Source: Chryseobacterium vaccae (lineage in GTDB: Bacteria; Bacteroidota; Bacteroidia; Flavobacteriales; Weeksellaceae). Taken from it: a stretch of DNA of 64,000 bases. This document shows positions 1,133 through 6,194 of this stretch, one piece after another (the first letter of the stretch is position 1; every line of letters begins with the position of its first letter). The stretch covers positions 3,472,001 through 3,536,000 of the forward strand of contig NZ_VSWH01000001.1 of assembly GCF_009602705.1 (NCBI RefSeq), written 5' to 3'. Under the pieces are notes generated by a model. It made no database searches, was not told the origin of the DNA, and saw nothing but the letters and a program-made list of their open reading frames with translations. Made by a program: the position numbers and the translations under genes.

Positions 1133-2098
1133 ATGAAAGCAAAATTAATGTTTTTGGCTTTTCTATTCATCAGTGCCATGAGTATAAAAGCCCAGTGTAA
1201 TCCTACCATCACCAGCCCGAGGCTTGGCGTAAAGTTTCCGGACAAAATTTTGTTCTGCAATACGGAAAACGAAGTCCTTTCTACACAGGCATTCGGCACC
1301 TATCAATGGTATAAGCAGGCATGGACCTGGCAGACGCCTAATAACAATCCTTGGGAACCCATTCCGGGAGAAACTTCACAAACCCTCACCATTAACGGGA
1401 ATGATGACCAGCTTTATTATTTTAAAGTAGCGGTAACCCAGGGAGACTGTTCAGCAGAAAGCCCTGCGGTAATGGCAGACGGATTTGTTTATGGACTTCC
1501 TTCCATGATCAGCACATTCACTCCCGGAACTTTTGAGCAGATAGGAGACGGGGAATTTAACATTTGTGCAGGAGCATCCGTACAGTTCAGCAATGCGTTT
1601 CCTGTGGTATACGGAACCCATACCTGGTACAAATGTATTCCAAGTATTGCGCCGCCTTCTGTGGGAGATGAGTGTGTTATTGAAGGCGAAACAGGAGATT
1701 CCTATACTGCGACAGAGTCCGGGGAATACGGTTTTTATGCCTGTACAGAATATTGTCCGGATCAGTGTGAGTTTTTAGGAACAGCATCATTCATCAAACT
1801 GAATTTCGGAAATTTTGAATTTTGCAGTAACCTGGGAACAGGAGAAACAAAAGCTAAAGACAACAATCTGAAAATTTATCCGAATCCAACAGCTCAGTTC
1901 CTGTACATCGGAAAAGAATCAGATAAAACGTACAGCGAAGTTTCTATCATTGATGTATCCGGAAAAGTGGTCCTGAAGAAAAACGGACATCAGTATAATG
2001 AAGCAATTGATGTAAGCAGATTGGTTCCCGGAAATTACTTCGTTCTTTCGACCGATACAAAAGGAAATGTTTACAAAAACAAGTTCATCAAAAAATAA
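1133..2098 (+). CDS. T9SS type A sorting domain-containing secreted protein
   Basis: The 321-residue protein has an N-terminal signal peptide (MKAKLMFLAFLFISAMSIKAQ cleaved after AQ or thereabouts). The middle has Trp/Tyr-rich, Cys-containing stretches (YQWYKQAWTWQ, HTWYKC) like Ig/PKD-type surface modules. The C-terminal ~75 residues are a classical type A sorting domain: LKIYPNPTAQFLYI, a VSIIDVSGKVV strand, LVPGNYFV and a basic end KNKFIKK. It is therefore expected to cross the outer membrane by T9SS and be anchored or released. It starts 36 bases after the barrel gene and is followed by a strong terminator. The ligand or activity is not recognisable. Confidence 0.9.
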   Translation: MKAKLMFLAFLFISAMSIKAQCNPTITSPRLGVKFPDKILFCNTENEVLSTQAFGTYQWYKQAWTWQTPNNNPWEPIPGETSQTLTINGNDDQLYYFKVAVTQGDCSAESPAVMADGFVYGLPSMISTFTPGTFEQIGDGEFNICAGASVQFSNAFPVVYGTHTWYKCIPSIAPPSVGDECVIEGETGDSYTATESGEYGFYACTEYCPDQCEFLGTASFIKLNFGNFEFCSNLGTGETKAKDNNLKIYPNPTAQFLYIGKESDKTYSEVSIIDVSGKVVLKKNGHQYNEAIDVSRLVPGNYFVLSTDTKGNVYKNKFIKK

Positions 2099-2196: not shown

Positions 2197-3300
2197 TTAA
2201 AATATTCTGTAGCTGATTCCAAGCCAGAATCCACCTTTCAGAACTTTTTTATAAGCGATCTCAGGCTGCTCCGTATATTCTTTATCCTGCTGTAATTTGT
2301 CAGATAAAACTTCTTTAAAAGCCCAGTTATAACCGGCATTAAACGTAATGTTATTAGTCATAAAGGTTCCTCCGAGCAGAAACCTGAGCTGTGTATCCAG
2401 ATCAATTCCTGCTCCGACATTAAAGCCTATTTTGGTTGTTGAATTCCTGAAACCATACAAGAAGTGAGCTAAAGTCATGGCCCCTAAAGACATTTTACCC
2501 CGGTCTTCTTCCCTGATGGTATAGGCATTATTTGCGTTTTTATCAGATACATAATACTTACTGTTGACAGGAGCAGCAAGAAATAGCCCGGAACTGAAGT
2601 AAGCCTTAAATTTACTTTTTGAAGTGAAAGTTGTTACATCTTTTTTTTCAGACTGTTTAATTGAATTATCTTCAGGAGGGGTGAAGGTCAGTTCAAAAGT
2701 ATAATCGGTACCGGCGGTTGTAAATTTTCCCAAATCCATTGTTGAATGCTTCTCATGGACAAAATAGGAAACATCGTTCATAAGGGAATTGAGCTTTTGA
2801 ACGTCTGTAAAGGTATATGATGAGGGGTTGTCAGAACTTTGATAAGCCGCTAACAGAGTATTTTCTTTTTTAAATTTTTCGATTTTAGTCTTTATATCTT
2901 TTGAAAAATAGGAGTTTTTCAATAGTGCATCTATTAATATTGCCTCATTATAAAGTTTTTTAAAGGCTGCATCTCTTTCTCCTTCTACTACATTCATAAT
3001 TTTAAGATCGGGAGAAATATCTCCGGACATTGCTTTTCGCAGAAAATCAAAAATTTCTTTGATTTTATCCTGCTGCTTTATCTGCAGTGATATTTTATAG
3101 TAAAACGGATTAATATTGATCATTTTCAGCTGATATTCTGTATTATTCTTAAGCTCATGAGGAGTTAATTCTTTCAGCTCGGATTTAGTATTTTTCACAA
3201 AATAACCGGATCTTTCAAAATCATAATAAATGGTATTTTCTTGGGAATGAATTATGCAGTACACGCATAGGAGCAGCATAAATAAAATTTTAGTTTTCAT
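2197..3300 (-). CDS. secreted protein of unknown function, possible outer-membrane C-terminus
   Basis: The start is placed at the ATG giving a signal peptide (MKTKILFMLLLCVYCIIHSQ) rather than the in-frame ATG 17 codons upstream; this gives 367 residues. The first two thirds are polar and mostly helical, with Lys-rich segments. The last ~130 residues have short glycine/aromatic strands (FLYGFRNSTTKIGFNVGAG, FNAGYNWAFKEV) and end in FWLGISYRIF, the aromatic terminus typical of outer-membrane strands. The family is not recognised. It lies downstream of the amidase gene on the same strand but is separated from it by 184 bases with a hairpin. An envelope-located immunity role is conceivable from position alone; nothing in the sequence shows it. 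Confidence 0.7.
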   Translation of the reverse strand: MKTKILFMLLLCVYCIIHSQENTIYYDFERSGYFVKNTKSELKELTPHELKNNTEYQLKMININPFYYKISLQIKQQDKIKEIFDFLRKAMSGDISPDLKIMNVVEGERDAAFKKLYNEAILIDALLKNSYFSKDIKTKIEKFKKENTLLAAYQSSDNPSSYTFTDVQKLNSLMNDVSYFVHEKHSTMDLGKFTTAGTDYTFELTFTPPEDNSIKQSEKKDVTTFTSKSKFKAYFSSGLFLAAPVNSKYYVSDKNANNAYTIREEDRGKMSLGAMTLAHFLYGFRNSTTKIGFNVGAGIDLDTQLRFLLGGTFMTNNITFNAGYNWAFKEVLSDKLQQDKEYTEQPEIAYKKVLKGGFWLGISYRIF

Positions 3301-3484: not shown

Positions 3485-4255
3485 TTAACGTTTTTCCCCT
3501 TTCAGAAGCCATATATAGACTTCTAGCTGAGAGTCACTGTTAAACCAATCTCCGTTACGCCAGTCTATATAGTTATCCAGTTCTTCATCCATGCCATATA
3601 TACGGGCGTCACCGCCTGAATCTTCATACACCAGATCTACATGTCCTGTTGCACCGTATTCTTCGTAATTATGAGAATCCAGATAAATAATACCTCCATA
3701 ACTTTTCCATTTTTTTGTTTCTGCAATGAAGGTGTCTAATTCATCGTCCGATTTAATAGGTCCGTCTGATTTAAGAGTCGGTGTACCCAATTTCTGTTTC
3801 AGGTAAGTTCCCATTTCATCAGCAGAAAGAATATACTGATGTTTGGGGTTGATATTGCCTGTCCAGGTACTTCTTTTATTTGAGGTAGTATGCTCAGGAA
3901 TATAATATCCTGCATTGTTGAGTGCCCACGAGAGTTTAATAGCACAGGTGTTTTCTCCAAATAAGCTTTTCCATCGGTCTTTCATAGGACCTGATGTTCC
4001 GGCATTATATTCCTTTTTTAATATCAATTGTCCGTCTTTTTGATAATTCTTTTTAATCTTATCATAATCCCAGATCGTTTTAATGCTTCCGCTTTGAGAT
4101 TCAGGAGAAAAGAAATCAAGATCATTTGCACTTTCACCCGTATTGGGATTAACCCCTGTAAAATAGGCGGCATCTTCAGGCAGCCATCGGGTAAATGCTT
4201 CGCTGCCTTGTCCCCATGTATTACTTTCCCAGGGATTTTTAAAATTATTTGCCAT
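3485..4255 (-). CDS. Tae4-like peptidoglycan amidase, putative antibacterial effector
   Basis: The protein has 256 residues and no signal peptide. Residues 101-120 (ENTCAIKLSWALNNAGYYIP) match the catalytic-Cys motif of the Tae4 (T6SS_amidase) family, with Cys104 at the start of the helix. Residues 187-210 carry GGIIYLDS and TGHVDLVY, matching the family's catalytic His block, with His205 and Asp207. Tae4 enzymes are NlpC/P60-fold amidases that cleave the gamma-D-Glu-mDAP bond and are injected into rivals. A ~90-residue N-terminal extension rich in Asn/Trp/Gly precedes the core and could be a loading region. It lies 61 bases after the 625-residue gene on the same strand, with a strong hairpin in the gap. 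No T6SS structural gene and no recognisable Tai4 immunity protein is adjacent. The fold call is confident; the secretion route is inference. Confidence 0.78.
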   Translation of the reverse strand: MANNFKNPWESNTWGQGSEAFTRWLPEDAAYFTGVNPNTGESANDLDFFSPESQSGSIKTIWDYDKIKKNYQKDGQLILKKEYNAGTSGPMKDRWKSLFGENTCAIKLSWALNNAGYYIPEHTTSNKRSTWTGNINPKHQYILSADEMGTYLKQKLGTPTLKSDGPIKSDDELDTFIAETKKWKSYGGIIYLDSHNYEEYGATGHVDLVYEDSGGDARIYGMDEELDNYIDWRNGDWFNSDSQLEVYIWLLKGEKR

Positions 4256-4276
4256 AGTAATGTGATTTTTTTGAAA

Positions 4277-4305
4277 ACCCGTTATGGCGTTTCACCATAA
4301 CGGGT
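4277..4305 (-). promoter_or_regulatory. perfect 11-bp intercistronic hairpin before the amidase start
   Basis: ACCCGTTATGG pairs perfectly with CCATAACGGGT around a 7-base loop. It lies wholly between the stop of the 625-residue gene and the amidase ATG. The run of T after it on the minus strand is short (TTTC), so it could be an attenuator, a processing or stability element, or a weak terminator that lowers effector expression relative to the upstream gene. Confidence 0.6.
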
Positions 4306-4316
4306 AAGGTGATTAT

Positions 4317-6194
4317 TTATACTTTTTCTGCAGTAGGGCTACAGCCACATCCTCCGCTTTGGGGTACATCGCAGCATTCTGAGAATATCTTTTTGTACAG
4401 TTTTGCCTGTTCAGCAGCGTCGTTAATCTGACTAATGATTTTCATTGCCTGGCTGATTCGTTCTTGTTCCTGCTCCCATTTTTGGGTTTCTATCTCCAAA
4501 CGCTTATCAGATTGCTCTATGGAAGATTTCATTCCTGAATTCTGTAATCCTAAAGCCTCATTGTTTAATTCAGCGGCTTCTACAGCAGAACCCTGTAAGT
4601 TCTGGTTGTAGCAATCCAGTGCTTCTCCCTGGCCTAATAACGCGTCTACAACAAGGGAAGGAGTACGCATTACCCTGTGGGTAACATCCAGTATAATCCC
4701 ATCTACCGATTTGTCTTTATAAACCTGCTTTAAGCCTTTACGCTTACGTACATAATACGTTGTTTTTGCCGGAATTTCAGGATTGATGCAGTTTCCAAGC
4801 TTTTCTTCAACTTTTTCAATAAAGCTCGATGGGGTACCTTGGAAATCGTAAATGCTGCATAGATAGCTATATACTTGGTTTTTAACTTCATTTACCGCAG
4901 AGTCATCCACTAATATTTCATTAAGCAGTTCCGGAAGCTGAGCCAATTTTACCGTTCTTTTGCTTTCAGGGAAACCGTTATAATAAACAAATGAAACATC
5001 GTACAGATAGGTGATACTGAAATATTCCTGTAATAACTGGCGGAAAACGAAGTTCAGCACACGGCTTTTATTGATGTTTTCAAGTTCGCGGACAATAGTC
5101 TCTTCGTTTTCATTAATACGAACGCTGCTGCTTTCAGAATTCACTTCAATCTGACGCATGCTGTCAGCCTTGGATACGTGATGGCTTACAGATCCTACAA
5201 GATTGCTCACCTGCGTCTGTACGCTGGAATTGAAAGTAGATCCTTCGGTATTGCTTCCCTGTCCGCCACCGCCACCACCGATGGATAAGAATCCAAGGTT
5301 AAGACCAATGCTACCACCGGCATTCCATCCTCCGGTTTTAGAAGTGGTTTCTTCTTTGGAAGATCCTGTTGTAAACTGGGTTTCTTTTTCTACAGTATTC
5401 TGAAGATCGTCTGCACTTGATTCGCTGTAGCTGTCCAGTACGTTCTGCGACTGTTCTTTTTTGGTTTCATCGTGCTGATAGGAACGGACGGTGATGGTTG
5501 TTTTTTCTCCCGGAAGCAATGAGAATGTTTTAACGGTTTGTCCCGCTCCGTAATCTCCAAGATAAGAAGCCATTTTAAGATGCAGAACCATACTCAAAGT
5601 GGGAGTGGCCTCCTTGGGTCTCGGAATATACAAGACTTCCGGTTTTTTTGAAAAACGTTCAACAGCTATAGGCATCAACCCTTTGGATAGTTTTTGTGCA
5701 ATTAAATCATCATCAATGAATTCTGCTTTTACTATATCCTTAATGTTGACAGTGGGAAGTATACTTTTCACTTCTGCAATTCTTGTTCCGTCATTTTTTA
5801 CAGCCTGCAGCTGGATAAGCTCCGGTGAAATAGTTTTTGCCTGTTGCAACTTGTTCAGTAAAGTTGTTTTGGTAATGGCTGATAATTCCGTTGCCTGAAG
5901 CTTAATGTTTTTATCAAGAACAGCAAAGTTCTGAATAAGGTTATTATCCGTTTTGATAGCCTCTTTGATTCCCTGTGTATTGAGCTGTTTTATCTCATCA
6001 ATTGCTGTCCAGTAAGTAGATTGTGTTTGCGTATACTGTTCTTTTTTAAATAATTCCTTACGGATATTAAGTCCGACGTAACTTACAGAATTGTAAGTGG
6101 TTTGCTGAGGCAGGTTATAATTTAAGATTGATGCCTCTCCATTATCCTCCAGCTTTACAAAAGGAGGTTTTATAGTACATGATGATTTGTCCAT
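4317..6194 (-). CDS. unrecognised 625-residue glycine-rich/coiled-coil protein paired with the amidase
   Basis: There is no signal peptide and no family I recognise. In order: an N-terminal polar helical region (to about residue 180); a beta-looking segment with LSMVLHLKMASYLGDYGAGQ and LLPGEKTTITVRSYQ (about 200-240); a Ser/Thr/Gln/Glu-rich stretch; a glycine-rich stretch (GGWNAGGSIGLNLGFLSI followed by six Gly) flanked by Ser/Asn-rich sequence; a mixed domain with LQEYFSITYLYDVSFVYYNG; a basic YYVRKRKGLKQVYKDK segment; then a ~50-residue C-terminal coiled coil and a Cys-rich tail (CC and CGC). The glycine-rich loop resembles membrane-inserting or fibre segments, but this is only resemblance. 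Its position directly upstream of a leaderless amidase suggests a carrier, partner or toxin component of a contact-dependent system. Confidence 0.6.
   Translation of the reverse strand: MDKSSCTIKPPFVKLEDNGEASILNYNLPQQTTYNSVSYVGLNIRKELFKKEQYTQTQSTYWTAIDEIKQLNTQGIKEAIKTDNNLIQNFAVLDKNIKLQATELSAITKTTLLNKLQQAKTISPELIQLQAVKNDGTRIAEVKSILPTVNIKDIVKAEFIDDDLIAQKLSKGLMPIAVERFSKKPEVLYIPRPKEATPTLSMVLHLKMASYLGDYGAGQTVKTFSLLPGEKTTITVRSYQHDETKKEQSQNVLDSYSESSADDLQNTVEKETQFTTGSSKEETTSKTGGWNAGGSIGLNLGFLSIGGGGGGQGSNTEGSTFNSSVQTQVSNLVGSVSHHVSKADSMRQIEVNSESSSVRINENEETIVRELENINKSRVLNFVFRQLLQEYFSITYLYDVSFVYYNGFPESKRTVKLAQLPELLNEILVDDSAVNEVKNQVYSYLCSIYDFQGTPSSFIEKVEEKLGNCINPEIPAKTTYYVRKRKGLKQVYKDKSVDGIILDVTHRVMRTPSLVVDALLGQGEALDCYNQNLQGSAVEAAELNNEALGLQNSGMKSSIEQSDKRLEIETQKWEQEQERISQAMKIISQINDAAEQAKLYKKIFSECCDVPQSGGCGCSPTAEKV

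What the first reader, a model, noticed from the sequence alone, without database searches (positions are those of the whole stretch)
3485..6194. Leaderless Tae4-like amidase paired with an unrecognised 625-residue protein
Seen: a 256-residue protein with a catalytic Cys motif (TCAIKLSWALN, Cys104) and a GHVDL His motif, no signal peptide and a ~90-residue N-terminal extension. It sits 61 bases after a large protein with a glycine-rich loop, a coiled coil and a Cys tail. Known: Tae4 amidases are injected by T6SS and need a periplasmic Tai4 immunity protein. Neither a T6SS gene nor a recognisable Tai4 is beside it. Inference: the 625-residue protein may be a carrier, adaptor or pore for amidase delivery, giving an unusual toxin-delivery pair; the 367-residue envelope protein downstream is the nearest immunity candidate.
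Basis: partly seen in the sequence, partly recalled or inferred. Interest (0 to 1): 0.72.

Follow-up and report, generated by a model that had tools for sequence, protein, structure and literature searches.

The report
Toxin carrier with a swappable cargo
The 625-residue protein belongs to an unrecognised, widespread family whose members sit beside interchangeable toxin genes, often with a likely immunity gene, which points to a new kind of toxin-carrying partner; how it delivers the toxin is not known.

Summary
In detail: a Tae4 amidase domain on a leaderless ~100-residue N-terminal extension follows, after 61 bases, a 625-residue protein without a significant match in Pfam, NCBIfam, PHROGs, PADLOC or PDB sequences. 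But the pair is a slot, not a fixed pair. Two Chryseobacterium relatives keep the large protein (84-88% identical) with other genes after it; one shares only the first ~47 residues with our amidase. A genome scan kept 80 loci (these two included), from Bacteroidota and Proteobacteria to Paenibacillus, actinobacteria, cyanobacteria and Lokiarchaeota. In 53 of 74 a same-strand gene follows within 150 bases. Of 41 such products given to Pfam 14 matched over cut-off, 9 of them peptidoglycan enzymes. NPW or NPY is near the N-terminus in 11 of 58 next-gene products and 5 of 625 other ORFs. In Bacteroidota the third gene usually starts with a hydrophobic segment (19 of 28): a likely immunity protein. 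One toxin-immunity pair recurs beside a VgrG-like gene. T6SSiii and eCIS markers are both absent from 31 of 44 genomes. Best reading: a module of carrier, tagged toxin and immunity protein. A pore in the carrier is only hinted at: fold searches list beta-pore-forming toxins first, none significantly, and a hairpin test was negative.

The parts
4317..6194 (-). Carrier: 625-residue protein of an unnamed family; in the model long beta-strands 199-226, 380-405, 500-520, Ser/Thr/Gly-rich insertion about 258-346, C-terminal helix 524-588; Cys-rich tail
3485..4255 (-). Cargo: 256-residue Tae4 amidase with N-terminal FKNPW tag (residues about 1-47 are 77% identical to the start of a different cargo in C. 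vrystaatense)
2197..3300 (-). Immunity candidate: 367-residue protein with signal-peptide-like start, not Tai4-like by sequence; of 147 relatives only the window's genome has it

Best explanation
Modular toxin system. Gene 1 encodes a conserved leaderless carrier. Gene 2 is a swappable toxin slot: here a Tae4 amidase, elsewhere other peptidoglycan enzymes, an Ntox44 toxin and unknown domains. Gene 3 is, in most Bacteroidota cases, a periplasmic, lipoprotein or membrane immunity protein. Shown by sequence: the family, the adjacency, the cargo turnover, shared N-terminal tags on otherwise unrelated cargos, and one toxin-immunity pair shared with a locus that bears a VgrG-like gene. Inferred: the N-terminal tag (FKNPW here) docks the cargo on the carrier; the loaded carrier leaves the producer by an unknown route (lysis or an unrecognised exporter) and brings the amidase into the envelope of a competitor, where it cuts peptidoglycan; kin are protected by the third gene. 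That the carrier itself forms the membrane passage is the favoured but weakest step (my estimate about 0.35).
For: Carrier kept at 84-88% in two same-genus genomes with different downstream genes. 82 of 210 pattern matches in genome contigs confirmed as relatives, 80 kept. Same-strand ORF of 100 or more residues within 150 bases downstream in 53 of 74 loci, against 13 of 67 upstream. Pfam over cut-off in 14 of 41 cargos scanned: Tae4 (window, L057, L043 second cargo), VanY, M15 types (three), Amidase_3, M23 (these nine act on peptidoglycan), Cellulase, DUF6973, DUF6402, M14 (L089, opposite strand), Ntox44. NPW/NPY in the first 60 residues of 11 of 58 next-gene products against 5 of 625 other ORFs, p 2e-9; two of those five are further tagged cargos in L048. 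N-terminal matches link cargos whose remainders do not match. Same tag on two different enzymes in L043 (64% over 36); same enzyme, different tags in L043 and L046 (38% over 259). L048 holds three tagged cargos, each followed by a protein with a signal-peptide-like start (my reading), around one carrier. Third gene with N-terminal hydrophobic segment 19 of 28, against 99 of 270 background, 1 of 37 carriers and 1 of 36 cargos; 18 of 25 with the same 100-residue floor as the background. Carrier-linked Tae4 of L057 is 51% identical over 202 residues to a Tae4 near a VgrG-like gene end (DUF2345, E 5e-6, below its cut-off) in L012, and its next gene matches the secreted protein that follows there (E 4.5e-6; 2.6e-8 against L013). 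Tag classes set by eye follow the carrier tree: 14 changes, shuffled mean 19.9, 0 of 200 as low.
Against: No physical interaction, export or killing is shown. In 21 of 74 loci no same-strand ORF of 100 or more residues lies within 150 bases, and at least five of the 58 counted next genes look like housekeeping or spurious ORFs (L029, L037, L070, L079, L097). 27 of 41 cargos scanned had no Pfam match over cut-off. Of the four Chryseobacterium cargos (window, L026, L027, L028) L028 lacks the NPW motif. In the three Bacillota loci printed (L056, L077, L083) no overlapping third gene is seen; immunity outside Bacteroidota was not tested further. Homologues in one Bacteroidota genus (L015, L016, L018) stand alone beside umuC/umuD-like genes (my reading). 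In the window the third gene starts 184 bases after the toxin instead of overlapping it. Tag classes were set by pattern after seeing the sequences; the pattern put four Paenibacillus/Cohnella rows of one cargo family into 'other'; NPW alone clusters only weakly (52 of 500 shuffles as low). Near-identical rows are not independent.
Confidence: 0.7

Rival explanations
1. Orphan effector of a known injection machine: the amidase is loaded on the T6SSiii or eCIS of the same genome, and the 625-residue protein is its chaperone or adaptor.
For: The genome has TssC and a CIS tube gene. All three Chryseobacterium genomes of the scan have TssC. A near relative of one cargo sits near a VgrG-like gene end. 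In C. endalhagicum a VgrG-type gene (Phage_base_V and Phage_GPD over cut-off) lies about 3.4 kb from the module.
Against: 31 of 44 carrier genomes have neither the TssC (T6SSiii) nor the CIS tube marker; many are drafts or MAGs, and proteobacterial T6SS types were not searched. C. indologenes CI_885, C. vrystaatense and C. endalhagicum lack the eCIS marker. The family is in Bacillota, actinobacteria and Lokiarchaeota, where a classical T6SS is not expected (recalled; contractile systems of haloarchaea are reported, PMC11566945, listing and abstract start seen).
Confidence: 0.15
2. Self-directed system: the carrier acts in the producer's own membrane (abortive-infection or programmed lysis) and moves the peptidoglycan enzyme into its own periplasm; the third gene is a restraint.
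For: Carriers and cargos are leaderless (all but one of 37 and of 36); 9 of 14 recognised cargos act on peptidoglycan. Patchy distribution: own genome plus two distant hits in an even draw of 395 genomes of the phylum.
Against: No PADLOC model matches any of 45 carriers. Recognised cargos include a cellulase, an Ntox44 toxin and, on the opposite strand, an M14 peptidase. A toxin and immunity pair shared with a VgrG-bearing locus points to rivals as targets.
Confidence: 0.1
3. The carrier is an unrelated neighbour, and adjacency reflects a shared mobile region.
For: Close same-strand adjacency is lacking in 21 of 74 loci; one genus has solo copies.
Against: Adjacency on the same strand recurs across phyla, cargos share tags, and tags track the carrier tree.
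Confidence: 0.05

Closest known systems
Tae4 amidase effectors of T6SS (Pfam PF14113)
   Same: Catalytic domain over the curated cut-off, catalytic Cys and His conserved
   Different: N-terminal tag and a carrier gene in place of an adjacent VgrG or Hcp; immunity candidate not Tai4-like by sequence
Polymorphic toxins with TANFOR domain, Bacteroidetes (PMC7073777, passages read)
   Same: Conserved delivery part, variable toxin, immunity gene; toxin sometimes in the adjacent gene
   Different: TANFOR proteins are large, proposed T9SS substrates, almost only in Bacteroidetes; the carrier here has no signal peptide, no TANFOR or other meaningful NCBIfam match and is found in many phyla
T6SS adaptors and co-effectors such as DUF4123, Eag and MIX (recalled; PMC7073777 names MIX and FIX in the passages read)
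   Same: A separate protein helps load a variable effector
   Different: No Pfam match of the carrier to these; most carrier genomes tested lack the T6SSiii and eCIS markers
Two-component toxins with a pore-forming carrier (anthrax-type, Tc toxins; recalled)
   Same: Idea of a carrier plus exchangeable enzyme
   Different: No sequence or significant fold match; pore formation untested

Membership tests
Tae4 amidase family | PF14113 match over curated cut-off | tested here: met
   57 bits against 27
Tae4 amidase family | Catalytic Cys and His conserved | tested here: met
   Cys104 and His205 invariant in 7 of 7; their catalytic role is recalled
Tae4/Tai4 T6SS effector-immunity pair | Tai4-like immunity gene next to it | tested here: not met
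   The window's 367-residue and 120-residue proteins match none of seven secreted proteins that stand next to other Tae4s at E 1; no Pfam Tai4 match
Tae4/Tai4 T6SS effector-immunity pair | T6SS genes adjacent | tested here: not met
   None among the neighbouring genes given to Pfam; TssC 1.2 Mb away
Polymorphic toxin system | Conserved delivery part with variable toxin part | tested here: met
   Carrier plus variable cargo, with the delivery part in a separate gene; that it delivers is inferred
Polymorphic toxin system | Immunity gene following the toxin | tested here: inconclusive
   Position and leader fit in 19 of 28 Bacteroidota third genes; protection not tested
eCIS cargo | eCIS locus present in carrier genomes | tested here: not met
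   CIS tube in 10 of 49; present in the window's own genome
T6SSiii effector | T6SSiii present in carrier genomes | tested here: not met
   TssC in 4 of 44, but in all three Chryseobacterium genomes of the scan and in the window's own
Beta-pore-forming toxin | Fold match | tested here: inconclusive
   No match at E 0.001 or better in two models; best E 0.013, probability at most 0.30, TM-score at most 0.25 in the printed rows
Beta-pore-forming toxin | Amphipathic transmembrane hairpin | tested here: not met
   Hydrophobic moment above shuffles (p under 0.05) in 3 of 45; the test is weak for short strands

The most novel reading that the evidence does not exclude
The carrier is the core of a new, machine-independent toxin-delivery class, found in bacteria and archaea with one giant-virus homologue: a soluble protein picks up any enzyme bearing a short N-terminal tag, oligomerises on a target cell and passes the enzyme through its own beta-barrel pore.
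Probability: 0.3. Interest if true: 0.95.

Novelty: new variant of a known kind. Interest (0 to 1): 0.8.

Why it matters
It names an unannotated protein family that marks toxin genes across many phyla, so new toxin and immunity families can be read from its downstream slot. If the tag-carrier link holds, it would be a simple delivery route for antibacterial enzymes that needs no contractile machine, and the tag could be tested as an address label for loading.

Tried and rejected
eCIS as the delivery machine: attractive because the family's distribution resembles that of eCIS (recalled) and the window's genome has one, but 39 of 49 carrier genomes lack the tube marker, all three Chryseobacterium of the scan among them (G022 and G081 also). 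T6SSiii: 40 of 44 lack TssC. Amphipathic hairpin as evidence for a pore: not significant, 3 of 45. Viral scans with three alignments: no relatives confirmed (28, 81 and 13 pattern matches). Phage records: none for two queries. Plasmid records: one, Sinorhizobium. G317 hit: taken as a coiled-coil false match to an SMC-like protein (my reading); it is gone with the 45-row profile. Profile search of PDB sequences: none. PADLOC: none; NCBIfam: one chance match among 45 members. Weak family hits at E 0.001-0.3, among them LAP1_C and a tail protein for the 367-residue protein, are below cut-off or have none and are taken as chance. Yasminevirus: the eCIS survey PMC8213781 (passages read) mentions this virus for Afp13 tail fibres, not for this family as far as those passages show. 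Literature: eight searches (listings and abstract starts seen, passages of two papers read) showed nothing that describes this family; preprints and most subscription papers are not held, so this is no proof of absence. No Foldseek control with an unrelated long-stranded protein was run.
Full report
1. What is there. The window lies in a 5.1 Mb genome whose same-genus relatives include G081 and G022; their contigs have the same lengths as those of Chryseobacterium vrystaatense (L027) and C. endalhagicum (L028), so I take the genus to be Chryseobacterium. Reading on the minus strand, a 625-residue gene (4317-6194) is followed after 61 bases by a 256-residue gene (3485-4255). The latter matches Pfam Tae4 over residues 101-213 (57 bits, cut-off 27); it is the only Tae4 match in the genome. 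Cys104 and His205 are invariant among seven Tae4 proteins aligned. Its closest match among the Tae4 proteins compared is in G072, in an ORF with an Rhs-type core (my reading of the sequence), 31% over 233 residues. The 625-residue protein has no significant match in Pfam, PHROGs, NCBIfam (one chance match among 45 members), PADLOC or PDB sequences.

2. The pair is a slot. In 147 relatives the 625-residue protein occurs in three genomes: the window's, G022 (88%) and G081 (84%). In G081 the next gene shares 77% over the first 47 residues with our amidase and then departs; in G022 it is a different 397-residue protein. Pfam finds nothing over cut-off in either. A distant relative (21% over residues 206-566) on the Sinorhizobium meliloti plasmid pAK76 is followed after 33 bases by a protein annotated polymorphic toxin type 44, which matches Pfam Ntox44.

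3. A widespread family. A genome-contig scan with the core alignment gave 210 pattern matches, 82 confirmed, 80 kept, the two relatives above among them: Bacteroidota, Alphaproteobacteria, Nitrosomonas and other Proteobacteria, Paenibacillus, Cohnella, Fictibacillus, Evansella, actinobacteria, Leptolyngbya, MAGs of Thermoanaerobaculia, Terriglobia, Planctomycetes, Zixibacteriota and Gemmatimonadetes, and three Lokiarchaeota MAGs. It is nevertheless rare: with the 45-row profile only the window's genome and two distant hits in an even draw of 395 genomes of the phylum. A Foldseek match to a Yasminevirus protein (E 4e-11, 21% identity, TM-score 0.23) suggests a giant-virus homologue.

4. Neighbourhood. 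I took 75 loci with a carrier ORF of 340 residues or more; 74 have a downstream ORF of 100 or more residues. It is on the same strand in 64 and on the same strand within 150 bases in 53; upstream, 43 of 67 are on the same strand and 13 of 67 within 150 bases. The next-gene products (58 within 300 bases on the same strand) are diverse. At least five of the 58 look like housekeeping or spurious ORFs (L029, L037, L070, L079, L097; my reading). I gave Pfam 41 cargos: the window's, three and 37 of the scan's loci. Fourteen matched over cut-off: Tae4 (window, L057, L043 second cargo), VanY (L041), M15 types (L044, L080, L082), Amidase_3 (L065), M23 (L083), Cellulase (L077), DUF6973 (L076), DUF6402 (L030), Ntox44 (L014) and M14 (L089, which lies on the opposite strand and begins like the cargo of L104). 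Nine of the fourteen act on peptidoglycan. Twenty-seven had none, among them sub-threshold matches to YkuD (L063), M43 (L052) and M23 (L048). The C. indologenes copy (L026) is Tae4 too and is not counted.

5. Tags. NPW or NPY is in the first 60 residues of 11 of 58 next-gene products and in 5 of 625 other ORFs of the loci (p 2e-9); two of those five are further tagged cargos upstream of the carrier in L048. BLAST of the first 70 residues links L026, L027, L031, L041, L042, L046, L048, L057, L058 and L059, while their stretches from residue 91 on do not match each other at E 0.01 (L026 and L057 are both Tae4 by Pfam). L043 has two cargos with the same N-terminus (64% over 36) and different enzymes, and its first cargo is 38% identical over 259 residues to that of L046, which bears another tag. 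Other lineages show other shared starts. Classes that I set by pattern follow the carrier tree better than chance (51 rows; 14 changes, shuffled mean 19.9, 0 of 200), NPW alone only weakly (52 of 500 shuffles as low). The patterns are crude: four rows of one Paenibacillus/Cohnella cargo family fell into 'other'.

6. Immunity. In Bacteroidota loci the third gene has an N-terminal hydrophobic segment in 19 of 28, against 99 of 270 other ORFs (p 0.002), 1 of 37 carriers and 1 of 36 cargos; with the background's floor of 100 residues it is 18 of 25. Many overlap the toxin stop by a few bases. L057 is the clearest case: its Tae4 is 51% identical over 202 residues to one in L012 that stands a few genes after a VgrG-like gene end (DUF2345, E 5e-6, under its cut-off), and its next gene matches the secreted protein that follows there (29%; E 4.5e-6, and 2.6e-8 against the L013 copy). 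In the window the 367-residue protein with a signal-peptide-like start (2197-3300) occurs in 1 of 147 relatives, the window's own, and is absent from the two that keep the carrier with other cargos; C. indologenes CI_885 has the carrier, the amidase and an 83% copy in the same order. This is consistent with immunity, on two genomes only.

7. Which machine? The window's genome has T6SSiii (TssC) and eCIS (CIS tube), both more than 1 Mb away. Across carrier genomes, the CIS tube is in 10 of 49 and TssC in 4 of 44; 31 of 44 have neither. All three Chryseobacterium of the scan have TssC, so for this genus a link to T6SSiii is not excluded. Many genomes are MAGs, so absences are soft; only these two markers were used and T6SS of the proteobacterial type was not tested.

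8. Structure. AlphaFold2 models of the window's carrier (pLDDT 69, pTM 0.60) and of a Paenibacillus carrier (74, 0.66) agree in secondary structure: very long beta-strands, an insertion between two of them with helices and a low-confidence hairpin, and a long C-terminal helix. Foldseek against PDB gave no match at E 0.001 or better. By my count of the 50 printed rows of each (of 87 and 157 matches), 40 and 48 are beta-pore-forming toxins or crystal proteins of such folds by name and recall, but with E 0.013 or worse, probability at most 0.30 and TM-scores of 0.25 or less. No control was run, so this is a lead. A test for an amphipathic hairpin was negative (3 of 45); the insertion's middle is rich in Gly/Ser/Thr (44% against 23%) and poor in charge (15% against 23.5%).

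9. Verdict. A module of carrier, tagged toxin and immunity protein is well supported by comparative genomics; docking and delivery by the carrier are hypotheses.

Noticed in passing
G000:C1:5078794-5079333 and C1:4669784-4671058: The window's genome carries both an eCIS tube gene and a T6SSiii TssC.
   Followed up: partly
L015, L016, L018: Distant carrier homologues in one small-genome Bacteroidota genus stand alone beside umuC/umuD-like genes (my reading), with no toxin slot seen; in L018 the frame is split in two.
   Followed up: no
L048:821-3587: Two further FKNPW-tagged cargos (one weakly M23-like, below cut-off), each followed by a protein with a signal-peptide-like start, lie upstream of the carrier: an array of three cargos.
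   Followed up: partly
L055, L060, L068, L071, L073, L090: Paenibacillus and Cohnella carriers are about 790-1030 residues long as ORFs and are followed by a conserved ~240-residue protein instead of a variable toxin.
   Followed up: no
L038, L039, L040: Kiloniella-type loci have a conserved ~360-residue gene directly upstream of the carrier and no clear cargo downstream.
   Followed up: no
BFVD A0A5K0U6Q4: Foldseek finds a likely homologue of the carrier in the giant virus Yasminevirus (E 4e-11).
   Followed up: no
L089:8432-9616 (minus): An M14 carboxypeptidase near an actinobacterial carrier, on the other strand, begins like the cargo of L104.
   Followed up: partly
L011:1945-2382: A lipoprotein-like Tae4 of another genome in the genus is followed by a gene with a sub-threshold Tai4 match (19.8 bits, cut-off 27.1).
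   Followed up: no
window 1133-2098: A protein with a T9SS sorting tail (Por_Secre_tail) lies beyond the immunity candidate and is kept in C. indologenes in the same order.
   Followed up: no
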